A stretch of DNA of 64,000 nt from Streptomyces sp. NBC_01304 (GTDB taxonomy: Bacteria > Actinomycetota > Actinomycetes > Streptomycetales > Streptomycetaceae): NCBI RefSeq assembly GCF_035975855.1, contig NZ_CP109055.1:1984001-2048000 (forward strand). Direction: 5' to 3'. Positions 403 to 21,880 of this stretch are shown here, in pieces. The position numbers were made by a program, and so were the translations under genes. The notes under the pieces are model-generated. The model saw only the letters and a list, made by a program, of their open reading frames with translations, was not told where the DNA came from and did no database searches. Numbering within the stretch: the first letter of the stretch is position 1; each line of letters opens with the position of its first letter.

Positions 403-1911
403 GTGACTGGCCTGTCTGCTTTCCCGCTGCCGTTTCATGCTTCACGCTCCATAGCGTTCGCGACGCCTCGGACGCTGCGGGAACTTCAGATGATGCAGTG
501 CAGCGCCCACATCCGGGCGAAGCCGGGGTGGTTCGACAAGGTGAACGATGCCGGCATCGTCGCCAGGTGGACGCAGGAAGCGGCCGCCCAGGGTCTCACC
601 GAAGCGCAGGTTCGTTACGTGCTGGCCGAACTCGTGCACTACGCCGCGTTGCGGGACGGGCGGACCGGCGTCGAGGTGTCCGCCGTCGACGGGGTGTGGC
701 AGTCGGACACGCTGGTCGGTGACGCGCTCGGATCCCGGCTGCGCGAGGCGGTTCGGGTTCTGGAGGAGGTCCCCGGGGCGGAACAGGACTGGCATCCCGG
801 ATCCGACGGCCAGGTACTGGATCTGGTGCATCCGTCGCTGTTCTGTCTGGTGAGAGACGTGAGCGGCGCGCCCGAGCGGGCCTGGCAGAACCCGGCGAAC
901 CGCCATGCGCAGTACGAATTCTCGGAGAAGTTCCAGTGGCTGCCCACGGATGTCGACGTCAGTGACGACGGCGATGTCGCCTTCCGCTCGTACGTCAACA
1001 ACGTCCATCCCGAGACTCATCGCGAACTCGGCTCCGTCCTGCCGGACTTGTTCGCGCGCCTGCGCCCGCTCTTCGAGAACGTGCTCACCGATCTGCGCCA
1101 TCCGCGGCCCCCGCGGATCGAGGCCGATCCCTACGGGTGGTACGACTCGGAGCCCGAGTACCCGGACAAGTCGTCCTTCAGTGACGAGGAGGCCTACAAG
1201 GAGGCCGTCCGCGCCTATGGCGAGGCCCAGGACGCCTGGTGGGAGAACCGCCGCCCCTCCGTCCCGGACGCCCCGGCCTTCACCCCGCCCGGGGTGCCCG
1301 ACGACTTCGCCCGAGTCGACCTGCGCGGCCGCCGTCTCCAGGTCATCGTCAAGCTCGCCACCCTTCACCTCACCCCGGACAAGCCCGAGTACACCGGCGG
1401 TTCCTGGCATGTCGAGGGGATGCTGAACGAGCGGATCGTCTCGACCGGCATCTACTACTGGGACAGCGAGAACATCACCGAAAGCCGGCTGAGCTTCCGG
1501 GCGGCACTCGACGACCCGGACTACGAACAGAACGACGACGACGGTCTGCGTGAGGTCTACGGCCTGGAGGACGAAGACGCACTGAACCAGGTGCTGGGAT
1601 CGGCAGCGACCCCGGCGGGCCGCTGCCTGGCGTTCCCGAACATCCTGCAACACCGCGTCGGTTCGTTCCGCCTCGCGGACCCCGGCCGCCCGGGGCATCG
1701 CAAGATTCTCGCGTTCTTCCTGGTCGACCCGTCGGAAAAGATCGTCTCGACCTCCGATGTGCCCCCGCAGCAGCCATGGTCCGACACCTCGACCATGACG
1801 CTCGAACAGGCCAGGAACTACCGCGAACAACTCATGCGGGAACGCAAGTTCTTCGTCGACGAACACAACGAGCAGCTCTACGAACGAGAATTCTCCCTCT
1901 GCGAGCACTGA
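403..1911 (+). CDS. DUF4246 family protein (2OG-Fe(II) oxygenase-like fold suspected)
   Basis: The protein has 502 aa with a GTG start preceded by GGAAGG ten bases upstream. The N-terminal TPRTLRELQMMQ and the C-terminal region match the DUF4246 family known from fungi and actinomycetes. Residues that could bind a metal are visible: H336-x-E338 in WHVEGMLNE and H417 in QHRVGSF, followed by GHRKILAFFLVDP. This spacing recalls the HxD/E...H plus Arg core of 2-oxoglutarate/iron oxygenases, an inference from motif layout only. A His/Asp/Glu-poor, Pro/Trp-rich middle (about 240-310) has no clear motif. It converges on the last gene of the NRPS operon with a 7-bp gap. A tailoring role is possible but unsupported. 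Confidence 0.8.
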   Translation: MTGLSAFPLPFHASRSIAFATPRTLRELQMMQCSAHIRAKPGWFDKVNDAGIVARWTQEAAAQGLTEAQVRYVLAELVHYAALRDGRTGVEVSAVDGVWQSDTLVGDALGSRLREAVRVLEEVPGAEQDWHPGSDGQVLDLVHPSLFCLVRDVSGAPERAWQNPANRHAQYEFSEKFQWLPTDVDVSDDGDVAFRSYVNNVHPETHRELGSVLPDLFARLRPLFENVLTDLRHPRPPRIEADPYGWYDSEPEYPDKSSFSDEEAYKEAVRAYGEAQDAWWENRRPSVPDAPAFTPPGVPDDFARVDLRGRRLQVIVKLATLHLTPDKPEYTGGSWHVEGMLNERIVSTGIYYWDSENITESRLSFRAALDDPDYEQNDDDGLREVYGLEDEDALNQVLGSAATPAGRCLAFPNILQHRVGSFRLADPGRPGHRKILAFFLVDPSEKIVSTSDVPPQQPWSDTSTMTLEQARNYREQLMRERKFFVDEHNEQLYEREFSLCEH

Positions 1912-1918
1912 ACCTCAC

Positions 1919-3469
1919 TCACGCCCCCACCCCGGCACGCCCTTCTCCGGCTGTCGACAACCGAGCGGCGACCGCCCTGCGGTCGATCTTGCGGTTCGCG
2001 TTGAGCGGCAGGTCGTCGACCCGGGTCAGGCCGCGCGGCACCATGTACCCCGGAACACGCTCGGCCAGCTCCGCGCGCACCAGCGACGGGTCCTGGGCGA
2101 TGCCGGTGTAGGCGGCCGCCAGACCCGTCTGGCCATGCGCGTCCGCGACCGGCACGACCACCGCCTCCTCGACGCCGGGCAGTGCGCGCAGCGCGGCCTC
2201 GACCTCGCCGAGCTCGATGCGATGGCCTCGGATCTTCACCTGGTGGTCGAGGCGCCCCAGATGAACCAGGGCCTCCCCCTGGGCCCGCACCCGGTCACCG
2301 GTGCGGTAGTACACCTCGTCGCCGGGCGGCGCGGCGTCCTCGTACGGCGTCGCCACCCGCCCGTCGAAGCGGACGAACCGGCCCGCGTTCTCCTCGGGCC
2401 GCAGATATCCGGGAAAGCGCTGCGGCCCGCGTACGCACAGCTCCCCTTCCTCGGACGGTGCGCCGGACTCGTCGAGGACGAGGAAGTCGAGACGCGGGTA
2501 CACCGTGCCGATCGGCACGGTGCCGTTGGCGGTCTTCGGCCACCGTCGCGGGTCGTCGGGCAGTCTGAACTGGGCGCAGGAGATGGTCACTTCGGTGGGT
2601 CCGTAGAGGTTCTCCAGGACGGCGGCGGGTGCGGCCTCGCGCCAGGCGGCGGCCTGCCGCACGGTCAGCGGCTCGCCGCCGAACAGCGTCCAGCGCAGCT
2701 GCGGCATGCCGCCCGCCGTCAGGTCGCCCAGGCGCTGCGCGTACGTGATGACGGACGGCACCGAGAACCAGTGCGTGATGCCACGGCCGGCGATGAACCG
2801 TGCGGGGCGCACCAGTTCACCGCGGCCGGGGACCACCAGCGCCGCCCCCGCGGACCAGGCGGTGAACATGTCCCAGGCCGCCGGGTCGAAGGTGAGGTCG
2901 AAGGTCCCCGACACCCGGGCGTCCGGGCCGATGTCGTAGCGGTCCAGGGCGTGGTCCAGGGTCGCCGAGGCGTTGCGCTGGAGGATCGGCACGCCTTTGG
3001 GTGTGCCGGTGGATCCGGAGGTGAACACGATGTACGCGACGGAGTCGGGGTCCGGTCGGTGCGCGGGCAGTTCCAGGCCGGCGTCGACGTCGCCGTCCGT
3101 GGTGAACTGCACGACCGGCACCGGCAGTTGGCGCACCTCCTCGGCGATCGCCACGTCGAGGCCGGCGTCGGCCGCGATGACCGCGAGCCGCTGCGGTGCC
3201 TGGTCGACGCCGAGCGGCACCGCGGCTGCCCCGATCCGCTGCGCCGCCAGATAGGAGGCGTACGCGGCGACACTGCGCCCCGCCAGGATGCCGACCCGGG
3301 CCGGGACCCGGCCGTCGAGCGCCGCGACCAGGCGGGCCGCGGTCCGGTCGGCGAGGGCCCGCAGTTCCGCGTACGTCAGTCGGCTGCCGCCGACCTCCAG
3401 CGCGGTCCGGTCGCCGAACTCGGCGGCGGAGGCGGCGAATCGCTCGTACAGGGTGGGCTGGTCGGTCAC
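1919..3469 (-). CDS. Free-standing NRPS adenylation domain
   Basis: This 516-aa single adenylation domain has no carrier or condensation domain. Core motifs are in order: A3 FTSGSTGTPKG near residue 153, A5 NLYGPTE, A7 YRTGD, A8 region HQVKIRGHRIELGEVE, and A10 LNANRKIDR carrying the catalytic Lys. It should activate an amino or related acid as the AMP ester and load a carrier in trans. The binding-pocket residues, read by eye, are D-P-W-F-L-G-L-I-S-(K), which I cannot assign to a substrate. The GTG start at 3469 overlaps the TGA of the upstream gene (GTGA), so translation is probably coupled. It is the last gene of the NRPS operon. The free carrier at 21635-21880 is the obvious partner. Confidence 0.9.
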   Translation of the reverse strand: MTDQPTLYERFAASAAEFGDRTALEVGGSRLTYAELRALADRTAARLVAALDGRVPARVGILAGRSVAAYASYLAAQRIGAAAVPLGVDQAPQRLAVIAADAGLDVAIAEEVRQLPVPVVQFTTDGDVDAGLELPAHRPDPDSVAYIVFTSGSTGTPKGVPILQRNASATLDHALDRYDIGPDARVSGTFDLTFDPAAWDMFTAWSAGAALVVPGRGELVRPARFIAGRGITHWFSVPSVITYAQRLGDLTAGGMPQLRWTLFGGEPLTVRQAAAWREAAPAAVLENLYGPTEVTISCAQFRLPDDPRRWPKTANGTVPIGTVYPRLDFLVLDESGAPSEEGELCVRGPQRFPGYLRPEENAGRFVRFDGRVATPYEDAAPPGDEVYYRTGDRVRAQGEALVHLGRLDHQVKIRGHRIELGEVEAALRALPGVEEAVVVPVADAHGQTGLAAAYTGIAQDPSLVRAELAERVPGYMVPRGLTRVDDLPLNANRKIDRRAVAARLSTAGEGRAGVGA

Positions 3470-5142
3470 GGCCGGCCCCCCGCGCCCTCGGCGGCACCGG
3501 AGCCGGTGACGTACGCGTCGTAATAGACGGGCGTGCCGAGGTAGGAGGACGTGAACACGCCGCCCACCCGGGACCCGCTGACCGCGAGATGGACGTACGA
3601 GTAGAGGGGTATGAGCGGCACCTGATGTGTCGTCAGCCGTTCGTCGAGGGCGCCCCATTCGGGTGCCGCGAGGTCTGCGGGCAGGGCGCTGATCCGGTCG
3701 ATCTCCGCGTTGATGTCCGGGTCGTCGAGGTAGGTGAAGTTGGCGTTGCCCGTCGGCCGGATGGTGCGCCCGTCGAAGGCGGTCAGGAGTGTCGAGGCGC
3801 CGGGCCAGTCGGCGGCCGTCGCCATCATGTAGAGGTCGTACTCGTTGTCCTTGGCGAGCGCGGCCGCATTGTGCGAGGGGCGGTCGATCTCCACCACCTC
3901 GACCCGGAAGCCCGCCCGCTCCAGGCTGTCGGCCACCGCCCGGCACGCCCCGGTGAAGTAGGCGCCGTCCCGGCTGAGCAGCCGCAGGGTGGGCGTGGCT
4001 CCCGCGAGCAGGGCGCGCGCCGCCTCGGGATCGCCGTGCGGGCCCGCGCCGTGCGGGTCGGGGTAGGCGCGGTAGCCGATGGTGCCGGGCGACAGCAGGG
4101 TGTGCACCAGGGCGCCCTGCGTCGGGTCCAGCATCGCGTCGCGCACCGCGCCGCGGTCCACCGCCGTGGCGAGGGCGCGGCGCACCGAACTATTCGTCAC
4201 CCGGGCGGTGTTGACGGCGAGATACCAGACGAGCGGAGTGGGATCCCGGCGCAGCCGGCCCTGGAGGGAGGTGTCGGCGAGGAGTTCCGGGGCGAGTTCG
4301 GCCGGCGCCTGGTTCTCGCCCACGGCGAAGGTGTCGTCGCCCTGATCGCCGCGTGCGCGCACGGTCTGCTGCTCCGCGTCGACCCCCAACTCGATGTGGA
4401 TGCGGTCCACATGGTCATGGCGCACCGCGTCGGTCGCGGCCGACCAGTGCGGGTTGCGTTCCAGGATCAGCCGCTCGTCCGGGACGTGGTCGGCGATCCG
4501 GTACGAGCCCGACGCCAGCGGCGCCTTGCCGTAGCTCTCCCCCGTGTCCACGTCCGCCGGGACCGGCGCGGTCGTGGCGAGGGACACGGCCATCGGCAGG
4601 TCCGGGTGCGGATCGCGGAAGCGGAACACCAGGGTGCGGGCGCCGCGTACCTCCAGGCCGGGCACCTGGTCGCTGCCGGAGGTGTGCGGACCCGGATAGT
4701 CGCCGTTCTCGCGCAGCCAGTCCTGCAGATGCGTGGGTCCGCCCGGGAGGGACTGCTCGAAGGAGCGGGCGATGCCGTGCGCGACGTCGGCCGCGGTGAC
4801 CGGGCGGCCGTCCTCGAAGCGGATGCCGTCCTTGAGGGTGAACTCCCAGGTGCGCGCGTCTCCGTGGACGTCGCGGCCCGGGCTGTCGGCGAGATCGCCG
4901 ACCAGCGTCCAGCCGCCCCTGCCGTCCTCGGCGAACATCGTCAGCGTCCGGTACAGCAACTGCCCGAGCGCCGTGGACTGCAAGGTGTGGATGCGTTGGG
5001 GGTCGAGGTGGTCGTAGTCGCCGTCGCGCAGGATGCGCAGCGTCCCGCCGCGCTCAGCGCCCTCCACGGGGCGGGCCGGGCCCCGCGAGTCGACGGGGTC
5101 CCAGGCGATGGAGGTGGCCGCTTCCCGCTGGGTCCCGGTCAT
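3466..5142 (-). CDS. Family 5 extracellular solute-binding protein-like (OppA/DppA type) without signal peptide
   Basis: The 558 aa begin MTGTQREAATSIAWDPVDS and reach the start of the SBP_bac_5 domain (GGTLRILRDGDYDHLDPQR) near residue 32. Family features follow: LLYRTLTMF, WEFTLKDGIRFEDGRPVTAADV, and later the LIPLYSYVHLAVSG region. Family members normally bind oligopeptides or similar solutes outside the cell as lipoproteins. Here I see no signal peptide, lipobox or membrane segment, and the start is fixed by an ATGA overlap with the preceding gene. It is therefore probably cytosolic. No permease or ATPase genes accompany it. A role in handling the peptide intermediate or product, or a repurposed binding fold, is inference. 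Confidence 0.82.
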   Translation of the reverse strand: MTGTQREAATSIAWDPVDSRGPARPVEGAERGGTLRILRDGDYDHLDPQRIHTLQSTALGQLLYRTLTMFAEDGRGGWTLVGDLADSPGRDVHGDARTWEFTLKDGIRFEDGRPVTAADVAHGIARSFEQSLPGGPTHLQDWLRENGDYPGPHTSGSDQVPGLEVRGARTLVFRFRDPHPDLPMAVSLATTAPVPADVDTGESYGKAPLASGSYRIADHVPDERLILERNPHWSAATDAVRHDHVDRIHIELGVDAEQQTVRARGDQGDDTFAVGENQAPAELAPELLADTSLQGRLRRDPTPLVWYLAVNTARVTNSSVRRALATAVDRGAVRDAMLDPTQGALVHTLLSPGTIGYRAYPDPHGAGPHGDPEAARALLAGATPTLRLLSRDGAYFTGACRAVADSLERAGFRVEVVEIDRPSHNAAALAKDNEYDLYMMATAADWPGASTLLTAFDGRTIRPTGNANFTYLDDPDINAEIDRISALPADLAAPEWGALDERLTTHQVPLIPLYSYVHLAVSGSRVGGVFTSSYLGTPVYYDAYVTGSGAAEGAGGRP

Positions 5143-6203
5143 CGCTCGCCGCCCGTCTGCGTGGCCCGGCGCAGCGCGTCGAGCCGGTCGAGCCCGGCGA
5201 GCACCGTGTCCGAGGGCACCCCGAAGTCGATGAGGCAGGCCAGTTCGTCGACGCCGGCGGCCCGCGCCTGTTCCACGATCGCGGACGCCTGCTCGACGGT
5301 GCCGAACAGACCGCTGCTCGTGTAGTACGTGTCGAAGGAGCGCCGGACCAGGAAGTCGATGTCGGAGTCCCGGAGTTTGTCCAGGTCGAAGCCCTGCAGA
5401 ATGCTGGTGGCGGAGCGGGCGATCAGTCCGAAGGAGCTCTTCAGGTACGCGGTGAAGGGTTCCCGGACCGTCTCCTTGACCTGGCCCGCGTCATCGCCGA
5501 TGTAGGTGTGCAGCATCAGCGCGACATGCCCGGGGCGGCCGTCGTGGTCGGGCCGGTCGGCCAGGGCCTTGCGGTAGAGGGCGATCTTCTCGGCGAGTTC
5601 GTCGAGGCTCTGCCCCAGCAGGTGGGTGAGCACCCCGGCGCCCGCCCGGCCCGCGGCCCGGAAGGTCTCCGGGCCGCCTGCGCTCGTGACCCACACCGGC
5701 AGTTCGGCCTGCACGGGCCTCGGGTGGATCCGCACCTCGGCGGGGTTGCCGGCGCCATCGGTGACCTGGAGCGGTTCGCCCCGCCACAGGGCGCGCACCT
5801 GGTCCACCGCCTCCAGGACGGCGTTCTTGCGGTCCGCGTAGCCCTCGGGGCGCAGCGCGAAGTCCACCGCGTTCCAGCCGGACGCCAGGGAGATGCCGGC
5901 CCGGCCGCCGGAGATGTTGTCGACGACCGACCACTCCTCGGCGATCCGTACCGGGTGGTGGAGCGGCGCCACCACGCTGCCCGCCCGGATCGCGACCCGC
6001 TCGGTGACGGCCGCGACCGCGGCACCGGTCACCGACGGGTTGGGGTAGAGCCCGCCGAACGGATGGAAGTGCCGCTCGGGCGTCCACACCGCCGAGAAGC
6101 CGTGCGTATCGGCGAACCGGGCACCGTCGAGCAGCAGGTCGTAGCGCCCGCCGTCGGTGGAGCCGACGCTGCCGTCCGCGAAGTAGAAGAGGCTGAAGTC
6201 CAT
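5139..6203 (-). CDS. Luciferase-like FMN-dependent monooxygenase (MupA/Atu3671-like, LLM class)
   Basis: The protein has about 354 aa and a TIM-barrel flavin monooxygenase signature: MDFSLFYFADG at the start, VWTPERHFHPFGGLYPNPSV, HHPVRIAEEWSVVDN, GRAGISLASGWN, and LPVWVTSAGGPETF. These match the NRPS/PKS-associated MupA-like subgroup. It probably uses reduced FMN and oxygen to oxidise a carrier-bound or released substrate, for example by hydroxylation. The start at 6203 is preferred over the ATG at 6209 because AAGG lies 7 bases before it, against 1 base for the other. Its stop overlaps the next start as ATGA. The substrate cannot be read from the sequence. Confidence 0.9.
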   Translation of the reverse strand: MDFSLFYFADGSVGSTDGGRYDLLLDGARFADTHGFSAVWTPERHFHPFGGLYPNPSVTGAAVAAVTERVAIRAGSVVAPLHHPVRIAEEWSVVDNISGGRAGISLASGWNAVDFALRPEGYADRKNAVLEAVDQVRALWRGEPLQVTDGAGNPAEVRIHPRPVQAELPVWVTSAGGPETFRAAGRAGAGVLTHLLGQSLDELAEKIALYRKALADRPDHDGRPGHVALMLHTYIGDDAGQVKETVREPFTAYLKSSFGLIARSATSILQGFDLDKLRDSDIDFLVRRSFDTYYTSSGLFGTVEQASAIVEQARAAGVDELACLIDFGVPSDTVLAGLDRLDALRRATQTGGER

Positions 6204-6220
6204 GTCCATGCCTTGGAGTT

Positions 6221-6249
6221 GAAGGGAGGGAAGGAAGAGGGAAGGGAGG
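6221..6249. repeat. 29-base homopurine/homopyrimidine tract
   Basis: The plus strand from 6221 to 6249 consists only of A and G in a near-repetitive GAAGGGAGG pattern. It sits between the mbtH-like gene and the flavin monooxygenase, so in the transcript it is a pyrimidine tract just ahead of the monooxygenase ribosome binding site. It could be an unstructured leader or a triplex-prone tract. No function is assigned. Confidence 0.6.
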
Positions 6250-6260
6250 TGAGGCGCGTG

Positions 6261-6461
6261 CTAGCGGATGCTCAGCGGCCGCAGGTCGGTCCAGACCGAG
6301 TCGATGTGGGCCAGGCACTCCTCGCGCGAGCCACGGGTGCCGGTCTCGCGCCAGCCGTCGGGCAGCGGCAGCACGGCCGGCCAGAGCGAGTACTGCTCCT
6401 CGTGGTTGACGACGACGGTGTGGACCGGCTCGGAGAAGGTGCCGGTGGGCTGGTCGGTCAT
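6261..6461 (-). CDS. mbtH: MbtH-like protein
   Basis: This 66-aa protein carries the complete MbtH signature: [10 protein letters not shown], the PLPDGW turn, the conserved [17 protein letters not shown] helix and a short tail. MbtH proteins bind the large subdomain of NRPS adenylation domains and are often needed for their folding or activity. Here it lies inside the NRPS operon between the exporter and the monooxygenase, so the five A domains of this cluster are its likely clients. The Ser-activating A domain of the large synthetase is one plausible dependent. Known: the family role. Inferred: which A domains need it. Confidence 0.97.
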
Positions 6462-6492
6462 GGGTGACTGGTGCCTTTCTGGTCTGAAGGAT

Positions 6493-6528
6493 CTGCAGGA
6501 GCTGCAGGAGCTGCAGGAGCTGCAGGGG
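6493..6528. repeat. Four tandem 9-bp repeats (CTGCAGGAG)
   Basis: Three perfect copies of CTGCAGGAG and a fourth ending GGG lie in the 73-bp gap between the MFS stop and the MbtH start. The repeat is non-coding on the operon strand. It could vary in copy number by slippage and change the spacing ahead of mbtH. Confidence 0.85.
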
Positions 6529-6534
6529 AGGTAC

Positions 6535-7836
6535 TCACTCGGAAAGCTGAGCGGGCAGCTCGTGCTTGAGGCGGGCGAGCGAGGACGCGCCGAGCGGGAT
6601 CAGGGCGAGGCACAGGCCGATCGCGGTGATCAGGACGGTGGAGCGCAGGCCTGCCGCCGCGCCCAGGAAGCCGCCGATGAGGGCGCCGAGCGGGGCGATG
6701 CCCATGGCGACGAAGCGGTTCGTGGCGGCTACCCGGCCCTGCAGCGAGTCGGGGGTGAGGGTCTGGCGGATGCTGAGGATGGTCACGTTGTTGGCCACGC
6801 CGAACGACGCGAACAGGAAGTTGATCAGCATCAGCGCACCCACCGAGAGCACCCCGTCGCCGTGCACGGCGGCCGTGCCCAGCATCACCAGGTTGGCGAT
6901 CGACGCGGTGATCAGCATGGTGCGGCCGTAGCCGAGCCGCTTGGGCAGCTGTCCCGCGAAGGTCGCGCCGACCAGGAAGCCCGGGCCGAGCGCGGCCATC
7001 ACCAGGCCGATCTGTGCGGCGCTCAGACCGAGGGTGCGCGGCATGAACTGAAGGAAAGCCACCTCGTACGCGGTGAACGACAGGTTGAAGATGGACGCCA
7101 TGATCGTCATGGCGCGCAGCGCCTCGTTGCCGAACACGAACCGCAGGCCGGTCCACACCTCGCGCAGCGTCGCGGCGGGGCCGGCCGCCTCGGTGGCCGT
7201 CGGCTTGTCCTCCCGGTGCTTGATGGACCAGATGGTGACCGCGGAGGCCAGATACGAGGCGGACGCGGCGAGCACCGCCACGGGCGCCGTCAGCCACTGC
7301 ACGAGGACACCGCCGAGCGCGGGACCGCCGACGGTGGCCGCGGACTGGCTGGCGCCGAGGGCCGCGTTGCCCCGGGTCAGCTCGTCGCGTTCGACGAGGC
7401 GGGGCAGATAGGCCTGCCCCGCCACGTCGAAGAGCACGCTTCCGCAGCCCGCGAAGAAGCCGAGGACATACAGCCAGCTGATGCCCAGCGAGTGCGTCCA
7501 GTACAGAACCGGGATCACCGAAAGGACCAGGGCCCGGCCGAGGTCGGTGGCGATGAGGATGTTCCGGCGCCGCACCCGGTCCACCAGGACTCCCGCGAGC
7601 AGCGAAAGCAGCAGATACGGCAGCTTGATCACGGAGGTCAGCACACCGACCTGCGCCGAACTCGCCGTCAGGGCGAGCACGGCGACCAGCGGCAGGGCCA
7701 GTTCGCTGATCTGGGCCGCGAACAGCGAGGCGGTCTGGCCGGTCCACAGCTTGGTGAAGTCGGCGTTCTTCCACACGCTGCGCGGTGGTGCGGGGGCCGC
7801 CTCGTCGACCTCGGCGGCGGTCACGGTTTCTGACAT
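6535..7836 (-). CDS. MFS exporter (MFS_3/EntS-like), likely peptide export
   Basis: The 433 aa contain about twelve hydrophobic segments. Family motifs are [27 protein letters not shown] at the first helix, [16 protein letters not shown] in the loop-2 position, and [18 protein letters not shown] in the middle. This is the EntS-like exporter group often found with siderophore and NRPS genes. GAGGAG stands 8 bases before the ATG. Its position within the operon, directly after the terminal NRPS module, suggests it exports the finished peptide. Self-resistance would fit equally. Substrate is inferred from context only. Confidence 0.9.
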
Positions 7837-7891
7837 GGGGACAACTCCTCGATGGTGGTGCGTACTTGACCGGCCGGGGGAACGGGGTGGG

Positions 7892-10800
7892 TCACCCGGC
7901 GAGCTCGCCGCGCGGCCGGCCGGCCGCGGCGCCCTCCAGGCGGCGGGCGACCTCGGGGACGTTGGGCTGCTCGAGCATGCTGAAGTGGTTGCCGGGCGAC
8001 TCGTCGATCAGGAGCCGGCCGCCGACCCGCTCCAGCCAGCCCATGTGCCAGCCGTCGAACAGCTCCGTCTCGGCCCGGATGAGGACCGCGTCGGTGCGCA
8101 GCGGGTCGCGCGGGGTGTCGCGGTACGTGAGCAGGGCGCGGGCGTGCCGCTGGTAGAGCTGGACCAGACGGCGCAGGTCCGCGGTGGAGCGGGCGTCGGC
8201 CCGCTCGTGGCCGGTGCCCTGGGTGAGCCTGACGACGTGCTCGATCCGGGCGTCGGAGTCCAGCGCCGCCAACTCCTCCTCGGTGACGTCCAGTTGACCG
8301 GCGAACGCGCCGAGGATCGCCGCGGACTCGCTGGTGGCGTAGCGCGGCGGCACCGGGTCGTCGATGCTGGCGCTGATGATCGTGAGCATCCCGACCTCTT
8401 CGCCCGCGGCCTCCAGCTGCCGGGCCATCTCGTACGAGACCATCCCGCCCATGCACCAGCCGCCGAGGTAATAGGGCCCCTCGGGCTGGACCGCGCGGAC
8501 CTCGGAGAGGTAGAGGCGGGCGATGTCCTCGACGGTGTCGGGGCGGGGCACGTCGGGGCCCGCGTACTCGGGTGCCTGGAAGGCGTAGAGCGGCTGGTCG
8601 GGGTGGAGCACGTCGACGAGTTCGGAGTAGCAGAACACGCTCCCGCCGAGCGGGTGCACCAGGAAGAACGGCGGGCGTTCGCCGGCCGAGCGCAGGGTGA
8701 CCAGGGTGGAGGCGGTGGCCTGCTGCTCGCCGTCGATGATCGAGGCGAGCTTCTCGATGGTGCCGCCCTCGAAGAGCGCCGCGACCGGCACTTCCACGTC
8801 CGTGATGTCGGGCAGCCGCATGATCACGCGCAGGGCGGAGATGGAGGTGCCGCCGAGGTCGAGGAACGGGTCGGTGACGCCGACCCGTTCGACGGACAGG
8901 ACATCGCGCCAGATCTCGGCGAGCTGTTCCTCGGTCTCGGTGCGCGGGGCGACGAACACCCCGGCTGTGGTCTGAGCGCGGTCGGGGGCGGGCAGGGCCT
9001 GCCGGTCGACCTTGCCGTTCGGCGTGAGCGGGAAGGCGTCCAGGACGACGAAGGCGCTCGGCACCATGTAGTCGGGAAGCGACTCGGCGGCCAGGGCGCG
9101 CAGTTCGGCGGTATCGGGCTGGGAACCGACGGCCCCGTCGGCGGTGAGGTAGGCGACCAGGCGGGTGCCGCCCGGCGCGTCGTCCCGGGCGGTGACCACG
9201 ACCCGCCCCACGGCGGGATGCCGGGCGAGGACCGTCTCGATCTCGCCCAGCTCGATCCGGAAGCCGCGCACCTTGACCTGGTGGTCGGAGCGCCCGAGGA
9301 ACTCCAGCCTGCCGTCGGGCAGTCGGCGGGCCACGTCACCGGTGCGGTACATCCGGGCGCCGGGCAGCCCGCCGTACGGGTCGGGCACGAAGCGCTCCGC
9401 CGTCAGGTCGCCGCGCCGCGAGTAGCCGCGGGCGAGGCCGTCGCCCGCGATGTACAGGTCGCCGGGCACGCCGTCGGGGACCAGGCCGTAGGAGGCGTCC
9501 AGGATGTGCACCTGGGTGCCGGCGATCGGGCGGCCGAGCGTGACGGGTTCGGCGGGCCGCACCCGGTCCAGGCAGGACCAGATGGTCGTCTCGGTCGGGC
9601 CGTACGCGTTCCACACCTCGCCGAACCGGTCGGTGAGGTCCCGGGCCAGTTCCTCGGGCAGCGCCTCGCCGCCCGATATCACCCGCAGCCGGGGGTCGGC
9701 GCCCAGGCCCGCCTCGACGAGCAGCCGCCAACTCGACGGCGTGGCCTGGACGATGGTCGCGCCCGAGGACTCCAGGTGCTCGCGCAGCCGGGCCCCGTCC
9801 ACCGCGATGTCGGGGGCGACGATCAGCTCGGCGCCGGTGAGCAGCGGCAGATAGACCTCCAGGCCCGCGATGTCGAAGGACAGCGAGGTCACCGCGAGCA
9901 GCCGGTCGGCGGGCGTGATGCGCAGATCGCGGCCGAAGGAGAACAGCAGGTTGAGCAGGGCCCGGTGCGGCACCTGCACGCCCTTGGGCAGGCCCGTCGA
10001 GCCCGAGGTGTAGATGACGTACGCGAGGTGGTCCGGGCCCGCGAGCCAGGGCAGGTCGACGTCCGGGCGGTCCGCCGCGGTGGCGGCGGTGACCTCGATG
10101 ACGGCCGTGCCCTCGGGGGTCCGGGGCGGGGTGGACCCGGCGCCCGTGAGGAGCACCGGCACCGCGGCGTCGTCGAGCATGTAGGCGAGCCGGTCCGCCG
10201 GATAGCCCGGGTCCAACGGCACATACGCGCCACCGGCCTTGAGCACCGCGACCAGGCTGACGATCAGTTCCAGGGAGCGGTCCAGGTGGACGCCGACCAG
10301 GGTGTCCGGGCCGACGCCGTGGTCGCGCAGCTCCCAGGCGAGGCGGTTGGAGCGGGCGCCCAGCTCGGCGTACGTGAGGGTGTCGGTGCCGAACCGGACC
10401 GCCACCGCGTCGGGGGTCTTCGCCGCACGCTCGGCGAGCAGCTCGGGCAGGGTGCGCTCCAGGGACCAGCCCTCCGCGGTGTCGTTCCACTCGCGCAGCA
10501 GCCGCTCGCGCTCGGCCGCGTCGAGGAGTTCGGTGGCGTGCACGGCGGCCGAGGGATCCTCGACGAGCGCGGCGAGAGCCCTGGCGTAGTAGCCGCCGAT
10601 GGTCTCGACGCGTGCGGCGGTGAACTGCGCGGCGTCGTAGTTGATGCGCAGCCCGACCTCGCCGGTGGCCGGGTCGGTGCCGAAGTTTGCCGTGAAGGGG
10701 AAGTTGGTCTGCTCGAAGAACTCCCCGCCCGTGATGGACAGTTGGTCCAGTTCGAGCTCGTAGCTGCGGAAGCTGCGGTGGTCCACGACCGTCTCGAACA

Positions 10801-11836
10801 GCGGCCCCTGGCGCAGGTCCTGCAGCAGCTGGGCGAGCGGGTAGCGGCGGTGCGGCAGCGCGTCGGTCTCCTGGTGGTGGATCCGCTGGGCCAGCTCGGT
10901 CCAGGTGGCGCCCGCCACGTCGGCCACCAGCGGCAGCGTGTTCAGGAACAGGCCGACGACCTGGTCGCCGTCCGCGGTCTCGGGCCGGCCGTTGCTGACC
11001 CGGCCGGTGACGACGCGGGACTGTCCGGTGAGCAGCGAGAGGACCCGGGCGTGCGCGGCGAACATCACGGCCTTCACCCCCACCCCGGCGTCGGCCGCCA
11101 CCTTGCGCAGCCGGTCGCCGATGCCCTCGGGCAGCGGCACTTGGTGGAGGCGGGCCGTGCGCTCGTCGAGGCGGCCCGCGTCTTCGTGCCGGGGCAGCCC
11201 GGTGAAGTCGCTGTCGGCGAGCAGCGCCGTCCAGTAGGCGCGGTCCTCGTCGGACGCCAGGGCCGCCTGCTCCAGCGCCAGATAGTCGCGGAACCGGGTG
11301 ACCGGCGCGGGGGCGGCGCTGAAGGTGCCGCCGAGCCCGGCGTCGTACCCCTCAAGGAGCTGTGCGGTGACCAGCGACAGGCTCCAGCCGTCGAGCACGG
11401 CGTGGTGGAAGCTCAGATTGAGCTGGAAGTCGCTGTCGGAGAAGACCTGTACGTGCACGGCGAGCAGCGGCGCCTTCGTCAGCACGAACGGCGTGCCCTT
11501 CTCCCGCGCGGTCCACTCGGCGATGCGCGCGGCCTGTTCGGCGGGGTCGAGTCCGCGCAGGTCGTCGACGGTGAGCGGGGTCTCGACCGTGGCGTGCACC
11601 AGCTGCATGGGTTGGCTGAAGCGGGTCACGTCGAAGCTGGACCGCAGGATGTCGTGGCGGGCGAGGACCGCGTCGAGGGATCTGCGCAGGGCCGCCTCGT
11701 CGAAGGGCCCGGACAGCCGGATGCCGGAGATGTCGTGGTAGGTGGGCGTGTCACCGTCCGCGAAGCTGTGGAAGAGCATTCCGGACTGGAGCAGGGTGAG
11801 GGGATAGGCGTCGATGATGTCGTCGGCAGACGGCAC
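7892..11836 (-). CDS. NRPS module C-A-T-TE with a Cys-type thioesterase
   Basis: The GTG start at 11836 (GGAAGGA six bases before) gives 1314 aa. The condensation domain (about 1-440) has HHAVLDG near 142 and opens AYPLTLLQSGMLFHS, unlike the LSWTQERLWF of the other C domains. The adenylation domain (about 455-960) has YTSGSTGLPKG near 607. Its pocket reads D-I-L-Q-I-G-A-I-W-(K), closest to glycine-type codes. The carrier (about 970-1050) has LGGTS with Ser998. The thioesterase (about 1070-1310) has LGGWCMGG with Cys1128 where Ser is usual, and a catalytic-type His in GNHFSML. It is the only module with a TE, so it should add the last residue and release the peptide by hydrolysis or cyclisation. 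Confidence 0.95.
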   Translation of the reverse strand: MPSADDIIDAYPLTLLQSGMLFHSFADGDTPTYHDISGIRLSGPFDEAALRRSLDAVLARHDILRSSFDVTRFSQPMQLVHATVETPLTVDDLRGLDPAEQAARIAEWTAREKGTPFVLTKAPLLAVHVQVFSDSDFQLNLSFHHAVLDGWSLSLVTAQLLEGYDAGLGGTFSAAPAPVTRFRDYLALEQAALASDEDRAYWTALLADSDFTGLPRHEDAGRLDERTARLHQVPLPEGIGDRLRKVAADAGVGVKAVMFAAHARVLSLLTGQSRVVTGRVSNGRPETADGDQVVGLFLNTLPLVADVAGATWTELAQRIHHQETDALPHRRYPLAQLLQDLRQGPLFETVVDHRSFRSYELELDQLSITGGEFFEQTNFPFTANFGTDPATGEVGLRINYDAAQFTAARVETIGGYYARALAALVEDPSAAVHATELLDAAERERLLREWNDTAEGWSLERTLPELLAERAAKTPDAVAVRFGTDTLTYAELGARSNRLAWELRDHGVGPDTLVGVHLDRSLELIVSLVAVLKAGGAYVPLDPGYPADRLAYMLDDAAVPVLLTGAGSTPPRTPEGTAVIEVTAATAADRPDVDLPWLAGPDHLAYVIYTSGSTGLPKGVQVPHRALLNLLFSFGRDLRITPADRLLAVTSLSFDIAGLEVYLPLLTGAELIVAPDIAVDGARLREHLESSGATIVQATPSSWRLLVEAGLGADPRLRVISGGEALPEELARDLTDRFGEVWNAYGPTETTIWSCLDRVRPAEPVTLGRPIAGTQVHILDASYGLVPDGVPGDLYIAGDGLARGYSRRGDLTAERFVPDPYGGLPGARMYRTGDVARRLPDGRLEFLGRSDHQVKVRGFRIELGEIETVLARHPAVGRVVVTARDDAPGGTRLVAYLTADGAVGSQPDTAELRALAAESLPDYMVPSAFVVLDAFPLTPNGKVDRQALPAPDRAQTTAGVFVAPRTETEEQLAEIWRDVLSVERVGVTDPFLDLGGTSISALRVIMRLPDITDVEVPVAALFEGGTIEKLASIIDGEQQATASTLVTLRSAGERPPFFLVHPLGGSVFCYSELVDVLHPDQPLYAFQAPEYAGPDVPRPDTVEDIARLYLSEVRAVQPEGPYYLGGWCMGGMVSYEMARQLEAAGEEVGMLTIISASIDDPVPPRYATSESAAILGAFAGQLDVTEEELAALDSDARIEHVVRLTQGTGHERADARSTADLRRLVQLYQRHARALLTYRDTPRDPLRTDAVLIRAETELFDGWHMGWLERVGGRLLIDESPGNHFSMLEQPNVPEVARRLEGAAAGRPRGELAG

Positions 11837-11970
11837 GGTGGATCCTTCCGGGTGGGTCGAGGGGGTACGCGGGTGGGCTCGCCCGGCTGAAGGGCGAGCG
11901 GCCGTTTCGGGGGCGCGGCCGGCGAGGCATGCGGTCGGCGAGGCGTGCGGTCGGTCAGCAGCGCGGCCGG

Positions 11971-18317
<6,347 letters not shown>

Positions 18318-18321
<4 letters not shown>

Positions 18322-21300
18322 CGTGGGTCCTTGTCGGATCGTGGGTCCGTGTCGGAAGGAGAACGGAGTGGAGAGGTACGGGCCGGGTGGGGGGCCGGTG
18401 CGGCGAGGTGCGGGCCGGGTGGCGCGGAGAGGTCGAGGAGTTCCGAGCGGAAGCGGTCGGCGATCTCGGCGAGCGCCTGCGCGTCGAGCAGCCCTTCGGG
18501 CGCCAGGACGGCGCCCGTGTAGCTCAGGCCGTCGTCCCACAGCTCGCAGCACAGCTCGGTCTGCGGGCCCAGGGGCGGGGCGGCCAGCGGCGTGAACCGC
18601 ACGCCGTCCGGGGTCAGTTGGGGCGGCCCGGTGCGCTGGAGGGCGAGGATGTTCTGGTAGAGCGGGGCGCGGCCGTCGGGCGGGCGTGGGGCGAGCGCGG
18701 CGATCTCGTCGGTGGGGAGCGCCGGGTGCGCGAGGACGTCGAAGAGCCGCTCCCGGGCGAGGGCGAGCAGTTCGCCGGGCGGCTGCGCGGGATCCGCGGT
18801 GATGCGGACCGGCAGACCGTTGGCGAGATACCCGACGGTCCGTTCTTCCTGTGGACCGCGGGTGTCGACGACGGTGCCGATCGTGAGGTCGTACTGCCCG
18901 GTGACCTTGGCCAGCGTCCGCCACCAGGCGGCAAGCAGCACGACCAGCGCGGGGCAGCGCTCGGCGGCGGCCAACTCCTTTACCCTCGAGGCCTGTTCAC
19001 CGCTGAGGCGCACCGGATGTGCGACCACGTCACGGGTCCACAGCTCCCGCATGGACGGCGCAGCACCGTACGGCAGGGCGAGGGCGGGCGCGTCCTCGAC
19101 CTGGCCGCGCCAGAACGCGCGCTGCCGTTCCCGCTCCGCGGGGGCGAGGCCGGCGTCCTCGGGCGGCCCGGGCGCCGCCGCCGGCGGGGACCCCGCGTAC
19201 GCGGCGGCCAGGTCCGCCATGACGACGGCGTCGGAGGCACCGTCGTACACGAGGTGGTGGACGCCGATGAGCAGCAGGTGGCGGCGCGGCCCGAGGGTGA
19301 GCAACGCGCCCGCGAACAGCGGGCCCCGGTCGAGATCGTGCAGTCCCGCCGCCAGCTCCTCGACGAGCTGCTGCTCCTCCCACTGGCCCCACTCCGCCCG
19401 CTCCGGATCGCCCGCGCTGCGGCGGACCGTGAGCGGGACCGGCGCGGCCCTGCCGGCCACGCTGCGGCGGGGACGGGCGCCCTGGCGGGGGAACGACGTC
19501 CGCAGGGCGGGGTGGGCGGCGGCCACCGCGGTCAGGGCCTGCCGCAGCCGGTCGGGGTCGAGCGGGCCGGTCACCTCGGTACGGGTGACGACCACATGTC
19601 CGGGTGCCCCCGGGGCCAGCCGCTCGGCCAGCCAGAACCGCCGCTCGCCGGGCGAGAGTTGGCCGGTGTCGGCGCCCGCACCCGCACCTATGTGCGTGTC
19701 TGTGCCCGGCACGTCGGCGGCCTCGCGCGCGGGGGTCGCCGGGCGCTGTCGTACGAGGTCTTCGAGGGCGGCGACGCTCGGGTGCCGGTACACATCGCGG
19801 GCGGACAGCGAGAGCCCGCACTGCCGCGAGAGCCGTGCCGCGACGCGCAGCACCTGCAGCGAGTTCGCACCGGCGTCGAGCAGGTCGGCGTCGGCGCCGA
19901 GCGCGGGCAGCGCGAGGATCTCCCGCACCGCCCGCAGCACGGCCGACTCGGAGCCGTCACCGGCGCCGCTCCCGCTGGGGCCGCCTGCCTCGGCGCCGTT
20001 GCCGCCGAGGCCGCCGTCCCCTTCCCCGCTCTTGGCGGGGCTGTCTTTTCCGGCTTCACCGGCTTCCCCGGCATCGCTCGTGCCGGGCTCTCCGCCCGCC
20101 GCCCCGGCGCCGGGCCGCGCGAGCGCCCACGCCTCGACGGCGCGCAGGTCCGCCTTGCCGGTGGGGCCCAGCGGTACCGGCTCCAGGTGCAGGAACCGGT
20201 CCGGTCGCAGATAGCCGGCCAGCGTCGCCGCGGCGTGCCCGCGCAACCGCGCGTCCGGCAGCGCACGGCCCGACCCGGTGACGTACACGCAGACCGTGCC
20301 GACGACAGTGGACCGCTCATCGCGCACCGGCACCAGGAACGCCTGCCGCACACCCGGGAGTTCGGCGATCCGCCGTTCCACCTCGCCCGGCTCGACCCGA
20401 TGCCCCCGGATCTTGAACTGGCGGTCCAGCCTGCCGAGGAAGGAGAGCCGCCCCGAGCCGTCGAGGACGACCCGGTCGCCGGTGCGGTACGCGCGCAGCG
20501 CACCGTGGCCCGGCAGCGTCAGCGTGGCGAAGCGGCGCTCGTCCTCCTCGGGCCGGGCGAGATAGCCGAGGGCGAGCCCGTCACCGGCCACCCACAGCTC
20601 CCCGGCAGTCCCGTGCTCCACCGGCCGGCCCGCCGCGTCCAGGACGGCAAGGAGCGTGCCGCGCACCGGAGAGCCCAGTGGAATCCCGTACGGGCCGTCG
20701 TCCAGCTGCCTGCCGATGTCGTACGTCGACACGAACACCATGGACTCCACCGGGCCGTAGCCATTGGTGAGGCGCAGCCCGGGGAAGCGGGCCCGCAGCG
20801 CGGCGACATGCGGCTCGGACAGGCGCTCACCGCCGGTCATCAGGTGCTGGATGCCCTCGAACGCGTCGATGTCCTCGTCGACGAGGAGATTGACCAACGA
20901 GCTGGTCAGCCAGGCGGTGTTGACCTGCTGTCCGCCGATCAGCGCGCGCAGCCCGTCGGGCGTGAGCAGCCGCTCGGCCGGCACCACACAGCACCCCCCG
21001 TTCATCAGCGGCCCGAACACCTCCAGCGCACCGGCGTCCCAGTAGGGCGCGGCGAGCAGGGGCATGACGGTCCCGCGTCCGAACGCGGCGAACCCGCCGT
21101 CGACGAACGTGCGGACGAAGGCACGGTGCGGTACGACCACGCCCTTGGGCCGCCCGGTGGAACCGGAGGTGAAGAACACGCAGGCCGCATCCCCGGCACC
21201 GGGCATGCCGGCCGTCGCGTGCCCGGGTGCTGCGGCACGGACCGCCCTGACCCGGGCGCCGTCGGTGTCGACGGCGTCGAGCACGACCGTGGCGTCCAGG

Positions 21301-21638
21301 TCGGCGAGCACCCCGTCGACGCGCTCGGCAGGCCAGTCGGGGTCCACCGCCGCATAGGCCGCGCCCGCGAGCAGCACACCCAGCGCGGCGATCGCGAAGG
21401 CCGCGCCGGGAACGGCCCTGACCGGCACGAACGCACCGGGCCGTACCCCCGCCCCGGTGAGCAGATCGCGGATCTCGTAGGCGCGCCGCACCAGTTCGGC
21501 GTACGTGACCCGGTCCTCGCCGGGCCCGCACAACGCGGGCGCCTGCGGGAAGCGGGCCGCCTGCGCGAGCACCGCCGCGTGCACCGTCTCCTCCTCCCCT
21601 ATGGGCGCACCGGGGCGGACGGCGATCGAAAGGCTCAC
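18318..21638 (-). CDS. NRPS starter A-T-C
   Basis: The GTG start at 21638 overlaps the stop of the carrier gene (GTGA); the protein has 1106 aa. The A domain (about 20-510) has FFTSGSTGRPKG near 159, YRTGD, and GPTGKAD as A10. Its pocket reads D-A-L-W-M-G-G-V-F, nearest to valine-type codes (DAxWxGGTF). A linker of about 60 residues rich in Gly, Ala, Ser and Glu (about 510-570) precedes the T domain, whose site is GANS near 590. A full C domain (about 650-1080) with HHLVYDG near 796 ends the protein. With no C domain ahead of A, it probably initiates. Because the next synthetase also begins with C, two C domains meet at this junction. Confidence 0.93.
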
Positions 21639-21880
21639 GGCAGACGGGGGGCGTCGGCCAGCGCGTCGGCCAGTTGCGCCGGCGTCAGTTGCAGTACGTC
21701 CGTGAAGTCGGCCTCGATCTGCCAGGTCTCCTCGATCCGGGCGACGACGAGGACGGCATGGAACGAGTCGCCGCCCTGCGCGACGAACGAGGCGTCGGCC
21801 ACCGCTTCGCCGCCGAGTACCTCGGCGACTATGCGGAGCACGTTCTCCGGGTCCAGGGCAGGACGTTCTACGAGCTCCAT
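21635..21880 (-). CDS. Free-standing peptidyl carrier protein
   Basis: The ATG at 21880 (GGAGAG nine bases upstream) gives an 81-aa carrier with AQGGDSFHAVLV, the Ser being the phosphopantetheine site. A longer frame exists upstream but its extra residues look non-coding. It is the first gene of the NRPS operon and its TGA overlaps the GTG of the A-T-C synthetase. No A domain is fused to it, while a free A domain closes the operon. Loading of this carrier by that A domain, and its use between the two tandem C domains, is inferred from counting domains. Confidence 0.88.
   Translation of the reverse strand: MELVERPALDPENVLRIVAEVLGGEAVADASFVAQGGDSFHAVLVVARIEETWQIEADFTDVLQLTPAQLADALADAPRLP

What the first reader, a model, noticed from the sequence alone, without database searches (positions are those of the whole stretch)
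1919..21880. NRPS line that closes only if a free A domain and a free carrier form a module between two tandem C domains
Seen: A-T-C ends in a C domain and the next protein starts with another C domain, each with an intact HHxxxDG. The same operon encodes exactly one free carrier (first gene) and one free A domain (last gene). If that A loads that carrier, and the carrier accepts from the first C and donates to the second, every C has a donor and acceptor. The result is five residues: Val-like, unknown, Lys2-type substrate, Ser, Gly-like. A split module with A and T at opposite ends of an operon is unusual.
Basis: partly seen in the sequence, partly recalled or inferred. Interest (0 to 1): 0.75.

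Follow-up and report, generated by a model that had tools for sequence, protein, structure and literature searches.

The report
Peptide assembly line with split module
A Streptomyces-like gene cluster for an unknown small peptide has one building step divided between two separate proteins, and six related clusters keep the same divided layout, so it is probably a working part of the assembly line.

Summary
Observation confirmed. C1 is a C domain, not an E domain. Six orthologous clusters keep the parts in the same order. Carrier serine and both histidines of C1 are kept 7 of 7, and carrier and free A share the deep split of the other parts.

'Closes only if' is too strong, since the free carrier could also start the chain. 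Of 20 A-T-C proteins fetched from other genomes, 18 have a C-less A-T or a free A nearby (no control set).

Carriers fed in trans are known. This is a new variant of a known kind: a conserved cluster family, for which I found no description, with an internal, fully split module. Loading, direction and product are untested.

The parts
21635..21880 (-). free peptidyl carrier, 81 aa, QGGDSF; closest solved structure is a type II PCP (4neo, E 3.5e-4)
18318..21638 (-). NRPS protein A1-T1-C1, 1106 aa, GTG start overlapping the carrier stop
18321..19673 (-). terminal condensation domain C1, HHLVYDG; C type, not E
11971..18321 (-). NRPS protein C2-A2-T2-C3-A3-T3, 2116 aa; A2 Lys2-like, A3 Ser code
17002..18321 (-). 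first condensation domain C2, HHIVFDG
7892..11836 (-). NRPS protein C4-A4-T4-TE, 1314 aa; A4 Gly-like code
6535..7836 (-). MFS exporter-like protein
6261..6461 (-).
5139..6209 (-). FMN luciferase-like monooxygenase, TIGR04020 (MupA/Atu3671), closest solved structure PuwE
3466..5142 (-). family 5 solute-binding-like protein (SBP), closest solved structure OppA2 of clavulanic acid; no hydrophobic N-terminus
1919..3469 (-). free adenylation domain, 516 aa, code DPWSLGLIS; closest solved structures 8k4r and IdnL7 (6akd)

Best explanation
One module of a five-residue NRPS line has been split into two free proteins. A1 loads T1 with a hydrophobic, perhaps Val-like residue. The free A loads the free carrier with a small amino acid. 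The LLM may oxidise the residue on that carrier at the alpha carbon. C1 moves the T1 residue onto the free carrier. C2 takes the dipeptide from the free carrier to T2 (perhaps a Lys2-type residue). C3 and C4 add Ser and a Gly-like residue, the TE releases the peptide and the MFS exports it; the MbtH-like protein may help one or more A domains. Shown: parts, order, intact motifs, conservation and co-inheritance. Inferred: that A loads the carrier, the direction through C1 and C2, the substrates, the LLM site and the export.
For: 5 A, 5 T, 4 C, 1 TE in the same order in 7 of 7 clusters. Of 392 genomes of the genus (own included) 5 have a carrier match of 55% identity or more, and the same five are the five best free-A matches. 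All 14 parts tested share the G065+G428 split. dN/dS in two pairs: carrier 0.22 and 0.26, C1 0.41 and 0.47, free A 0.30 and 0.37. C1 matches C domains at 1e-28 but 2xhg, an E domain (recalled), only at 7e-4. The carrier's closest solved match is a type II PCP (weak). In other genomes 20 of 20 fetched A-T-C proteins end in C, and 18 of 20 have a C-less A-T or free A nearby, including free A next to free carrier in G164. Pfam assigned no discrete TE, which could release a carrier-bound monomer, among the operon's genes.
Against: No biochemistry. Reversed use of C1 gives the same arithmetic. C1 has HHxxxDA instead of DG in 3 of 7 clusters and the highest dN/dS of the four C domains in both pairs. 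The free A is closest to VinM/IdnL7-type enzymes. Kinship of C1 with the surveyed A-T-C C domains is not supported once more C domains are added (0.388). No control set of ordinary NRPS loci was surveyed for C-less A-T or free A neighbours. Discrete TEs elsewhere in the genome were not looked for.
Confidence: 0.6

Rival explanations
1. The free A and free carrier are the initiation unit: the carrier-bound residue is the donor to C1, T1 the acceptor, then C2 takes the dipeptide from T1 to T2. Residues one and two swap.
For: The same arithmetic closes. The carrier gene is first and overlaps the A-T-C gene, as expected for a donor that works with A-T-C.
Against: A C domain fused behind its T normally takes that T as donor (recalled rule). 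In the surveyed A-T-C loci the usual partner is a C-less A-T or free A, which I read as an acceptor, though direction is not shown there either.
Confidence: 0.17
2. The free A is a VinM-like enzyme that couples a small amino acid directly to the amine of a carrier-bound residue, without a C domain, for example as a cap; the free carrier is then loaded by another A domain.
For: Closest solved structures are 8k4r (probably VinM, inferred) and IdnL7 6akd; VinM forms an amide on a carrier-bound beta-amino acyl group (passages of PMC11284099).
Against: [quoted passage not shown] Pfam assigned no peptidase or acyltransferase, as the vicenistatin pathway uses, among the operon's genes.
Confidence: 0.1
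3. Free A and free carrier only prepare an unusual monomer (oxidised by the LLM) that is released and re-activated by an A domain of the line, as proposed for PlyC and the free PCPs of polyoxypeptin; one of the tandem C domains is then idle or does another reaction.
For: LLM, SBP and free A genes overlap; polyoxypeptin precedent. C1 is the least constrained C domain and has DA in 3 of 7.
Against: Pfam assigned no discrete TE among the operon's genes. C1 and C2 keep both histidines in 7 of 7. It leaves a tandem C unexplained.
Confidence: 0.1

Closest known systems
Type II (free) PCPs; 4neo, titled NRPS type II-PCP (BlmI of the bleomycin producer, recalled)
   Same: free-standing carrier of about 80-90 aa, closest solved match
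   Different: match is weak (E 3.5e-4); here the carrier sits, in the proposed chain order, between an A-T-C and a C-starting protein of one conserved operon
Stand-alone A-T units feeding a line in trans (syringomycin SyrB1, albicidin Alb04, ramoplanin, enduracidin; PMC8949500 passages)
   Same: an amino acid is activated and held on a separate carrier, often for tailoring, before entering the line
   Different: there A and T are one protein and the line keeps a module lacking A or holding a dead A; here A and T are two proteins at opposite ends of the operon and the line keeps no slot for them other than the tandem C
Polyoxypeptin PlyC (free A) and PlyD/PlyQ (free PCP) (PMC3943440 passages)
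   Same: separate free A and free PCP genes, essential for product, with oxygenases
   Different: there discrete TEs are proposed to release the monomer for re-activation; none was assigned in this operon, and here the number of C domains fits direct use
VinM / IdnL7 free A enzymes (PMC11284099, PMC11253843 passages)
   Same: closest solved structures to the free A; activate small amino acids; VinM acts with a free carrier
   Different: the three residues called typical are absent here; macrolactam polyketide context, amide formation in VinM
Ichizinone cluster (PMC12144821: abstract, passages, section 17)
   Same: Streptomyces NRPS line with separate module proteins, MFS, MbtH and an LLM proposed to oxidise an alpha carbon
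   Different: four modules, one with an epimerization domain, and a KS-ACP protein; no free A or free carrier named in what I saw
Locus G164 of the genus (L164+L152+L165)
   Same: A-T-C protein with an adjacent free A and free carrier on the same strand
   Different: mixed with KS and C-A proteins; no LLM or SBP hit with the profiles used

Membership tests
Canonical condensation domain (C1) | HHxxxDG with intact second His | tested here: met
   HHLVYDG in the window; HH and D kept 7 of 7, the final G is A in 3 of 7
Epimerization domain (alternative for C1) | closer to E than to C domains; E motifs | tested here: not met
   C domains at 1e-28, 2xhg (E domain, recalled) at 7e-4; no E motif seen on reading the sequence (motifs recalled)
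Type II peptidyl carrier protein | free-standing, PP-binding family, serine for phosphopantetheine | tested here: met
   81 aa, PF00550 above cut-off, GGDS in 7 of 7
Type II peptidyl carrier protein | loaded in trans by a free A domain | not testable with these tools
   needs a loading assay
VinM-type amide-forming A enzyme | C217, A285, T318 (IdnL7 numbering) | tested here: not met
   P, G, S or A in the columns aligned to 8k4r; an alignment to IdnL7 itself was not printed
MupA/Atu3671 LLM (TIGR04020) | score above NCBIfam cut-off | tested here: met
   487.7 bits against cut-off 244.45; only one place above cut-off in the genome
Lys2 / alpha-aminoadipate enzyme TIGR03443 (A2) | score above cut-off of TIGR03443 | tested here: not met
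   251 of 1030 bits. Of five A domains searched alone only A2 is listed at 1e-60, but the whole C-A-T-TE frame also reached 245 bits: a modest resemblance
Exported solute-binding protein family 5 | hydrophobic signal peptide | tested here: not met
   highest Kyte-Doolittle mean over 15 residues near the N-terminus is -0.28 in the window and at most 0.57 in 6 orthologs; no signal-peptide predictor was available

The most novel reading that the evidence does not exclude
The module was split so that the LLM can reach the residue on a small free carrier: the free A loads it, the LLM (perhaps with the OppA2-like protein as a cytoplasmic partner) oxidises its alpha carbon, and the oxidised residue enters through C1 and C2, giving a pentapeptide with an oxidised residue two, from a cluster family for which I found no described product.
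Probability: 0.25. Interest if true: 0.7.

Novelty: new variant of a known kind. Interest (0 to 1): 0.5.

Why it matters
Tools that read modules along one protein would probably call this line four modules with a spare C. If the split module is real, it is a natural, evolutionarily stable example of a detachable internal module (A and T as separate proteins), useful for engineering and for tailoring on the carrier. It also points to a peptide family, apparently undescribed, in this genus and a second genus of the family. The LLM and the OppA2-like protein without a visible signal sequence are open questions that could be tested here.

Tried and rejected
Considered and rejected: C1 is an epimerase, which would make the layout an ordinary A-T-E then C-A-T (against it). 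Considered: C1 forms one clade with the C of the A-T-C protein at 9.144 Mb; seen in a small tree but not supported in the larger one (0.388), where its nearest neighbours are C domains of G036, G048 and G045 (0.862), which look stand-alone because they follow the LLM frame (inferred). Considered: the fused A-T-C-C-A-T-C-A-T open frame of G428 as a natural fusion; rejected because A1 and C1 homology there lies in two frames each. G557 was a carrier hit (48%) but lies in a different NRPS/PKS cluster, with an LLM of 47% identity. The C1 search in 199 genomes at E 1e-45 found only the window and two of the orthologs. Literature: ten searches (open-access library only). Searches found no paper; the others gave listings, some capped (10 of 56, 5 of 6, 12 of 300, 13 of 14, 20 of 81). 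I saw none that I could tie to this cluster and opened only the six papers named in the report. No structure was predicted.

Limits of counts: G428 C1 (and possibly A1) taken includes residues read past the frame break, so its identities and its place are rough; its C1 was left out. The free A of G547 and G428 is cut by the end of my stretch, and the last five code letters of G547 are missing. In the A-T-C survey I fetched 20 of the 42 places, from the upper part of the ranking, leaving out G244, G267, G283, G014, G068 (two pieces) and G116 on the way, and all below G145. The printed tables leave out MFS-only frames. My profile HMMs come from the window family (KS from G557), so a very divergent C domain could be missed. 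That G000 and its genus are Streptomyces is inferred from matching named records.
Full report
Check of the observation. The window is G000:C1:1984001-2048000 of a genome of 10.99 Mb, Streptomyces by its kin (inferred). On the minus strand, in order of transcription, are: free carrier 21880-21635 (81 aa), A1-T1-C1 21638-18318 (1106 aa), C2-A2-T2-C3-A3-T3 18321-11971 (2116 aa), C4-A4-T4-TE 11836-7892 (1314 aa), MFS 7836-6535, MbtH-like 6461-6261, LLM 6209-5139, solute-binding-like protein (SBP) 5142-3466, and free A 3469-1919. Four junctions overlap by 4 bp. The carrier has PF00550 above cut-off and QGGDSF; C1 has HHLVYDG and C2 HHIVFDG.

Is C1 a C domain? An A-T-E protein followed by C-A-T would look similar and be ordinary. 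C1 matches the N-terminal part of Txo2 and Txo1 at about 1e-28, PvdL at 2e-24 and the 'C-domain type II peptide synthetase' 4znm at 3e-19, while 2xhg (an E domain, recalled) is reached only at 7e-4. C2 is a strong, ordinary C (Txo1, 1.3e-75) and is 54.7% identical to C3. C1 is a divergent C domain, not an E domain.

Conservation. The carrier was searched in 392 genomes of the genus (own included): 58 had a match at 1e-4, but only 5 of 55% identity or more (own, G267, G243, G065, G049). The free A, searched in 392 genomes of the genus under the same handles, gave the same five as its five best matches (61-100%); the highest identity among the rest is 59%. A draw of 200 genomes of the family added G547 (58%), G428 (46%, another genus) and G557 (48%), a different NRPS/PKS cluster. 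Six of the seven foreign loci have every domain of the operon in the same order, and the MbtH gene was found in 6 of 6. The named records Streptomyces sp. NBC_00620 and NRRL F-525 hold the 3' part. Carrier serine is kept 7 of 7. Codes: A1 DALL[LM]G[GC]VF, A2 DPRHFG[LM]QA, A3 DVWH[VA]SLVD, A4 DILQ[IV]GAIW in 7 of 7; free A DPWSLGL[VI][SA] in 6 of 6 complete. C1 keeps HH and D in 7 of 7, but the last G is A in G243, G065 and G428. All 14 parts tested put G065 and G428 apart from the rest (support 0.904-1.0), so carrier and free A were inherited with the line. dN/dS in two close pairs is below 1 for every part; carrier 0.22 and 0.26, free A 0.30 and 0.37, C1 0.41 and 0.47. C1 is thus less constrained than C2-C4 but not decaying.

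Arithmetic. Five A, five T, four C and one TE make one linear pentapeptide with nothing left over. This is conserved in 7 of 7. An order in which the free carrier donates to T1 through C1 also balances, so 'closes only if' is too strong.

A-T-C proteins elsewhere. The same genome has another A-T-C protein at 9.144 Mb, with a KS-T and a C-less A-T beside it. Its C domain was searched in 295 genomes of the genus: 42 places in 39 genomes at 1e-35. I fetched 20 of the 42. All 20 are A-T-C proteins in open frames of 1036-1374 codons that end in C. With wider stretches for 10 of them, 14 of 20 have a C-less A-T protein nearby (G229 among them has weak C-like fragments before the A; some of the 14 also have a free A), 4 have a free A (G151 and G226 beside a T-TE; G253, which also has an A-T further off; G164 next to a free carrier), one has only a fragment at the edge (G275) and one, on a short contig, has nothing (G001). 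G036, G048 and G045 also have a free carrier, an LLM of 390-399 bits and a C that looks stand-alone, and those C domains are the nearest neighbours of C1 in the tree (0.862). So these A-T-C proteins commonly lie near a C-less acceptor, sometimes split. I did not run a control set of ordinary NRPS loci, and the joint clade of C1 with these A-T-C C domains has support of only 0.388.

The free A. Its closest solved structures are 8k4r, probably VinM by its kinship and my recall (inferred), and IdnL7 6akd; the similar total for LgrA is the sum of two domains. VinM activates Ala, Ser and Gly and forms an amide on a carrier-bound beta-amino acyl group (passages). [quoted passage not shown]) are P, G and S or A here. 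Free A matches at 1e-120 or better occur in 84 of 392 genomes, most at 46-59% identity, and in the 20 loci that I annotated they lie in other settings: beside a second A, a KS, C-T-TE or C-A-T, and once (L127) in an A-T-C protein. So the free A probably uses a small amino acid, and I hold loading more likely than amide formation, but this is open.

Other parts. The LLM belongs to TIGR04020 (487.7 bits), is the only one above cut-off in the genome, is one of the best conserved parts (79-86%) and is closest to PuwE. MupA is tied to alpha-hydroxylation of a carrier-bound thioester (abstract start; passages), and IchD is proposed to oxidise an alpha carbon. The SBP is closest to OppA2 of clavulanic acid and shows no hydrophobic N-terminus in 7 of 7. 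LLM, SBP and free A genes overlap, which is why I place the LLM on the free carrier, as an inference.

Substrates. A3 has a Ser code (recalled). A2 is, of the five A domains searched alone, the only one listed for the alpha-aminoadipate model TIGR03443 at 1e-60 (251 bits, far below its cut-off), but the whole C-A-T-TE frame also reached 245 bits, so 'Lys2-type' is a modest resemblance. A1 ranks near an AusA stretch, near 4gr5 (SlgN1, recalled) and near PA1221, a Val domain, so Val-like is weak. A4 is Gly-like by recalled codes.

Known and new. Carriers loaded in trans are well known: stand-alone A-T units in syringomycin, albicidin, ramoplanin and enduracidin (passages of PMC8949500), and free A with free PCPs in polyoxypeptin (passages of PMC3943440). 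What differs is that A and T are two proteins at opposite ends of a conserved operon and stand for an internal module. I found no description of this cluster in the open-access library (listings partly capped). Papers seen: PMC11284099, PMC11253843, PMC10952193, PMC3943440, PMC8949500 (passages), PMC12144821 (abstract, passages, section 17).

Noticed in passing
   Followed up: yes
window 3466-5142: OppA2-like solute-binding protein without a hydrophobic N-terminus, between LLM and free A in all seven clusters. Role unknown.
   Followed up: partly
G267 and G243 clusters (L039-L042), A2 domain: In-frame low-complexity stretches of 147 and 131 codons, (GQP)n-like and (GTSP)n-like, between matched segments at different places of A2.
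   Followed up: partly
L052+L053 (G428): A1 and C1 homology lies in two frames each; draft genome, left as is.
   Followed up: no
loci upstream of the carrier in G267, G243, G049, G547, G428: Divergent gene next to the carrier in five relatives, LuxR-like by my reading of its C-terminus, not scanned; not seen at that place in the window.
   Followed up: no
L150, L153, L156 (G036, G048, G045): Clusters with LLM, apparently stand-alone C, free carrier and A-T-C protein; their C domains are nearest to C1.
   Followed up: partly
L127 (G212:C29:80001-100000): A domain like the free A inside an A-T-C protein, with carriers and another A nearby.
   Followed up: no
window 403-1911 (+): DUF4246 protein gene converges on the free A gene with a 7 bp gap.
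   Followed up: no
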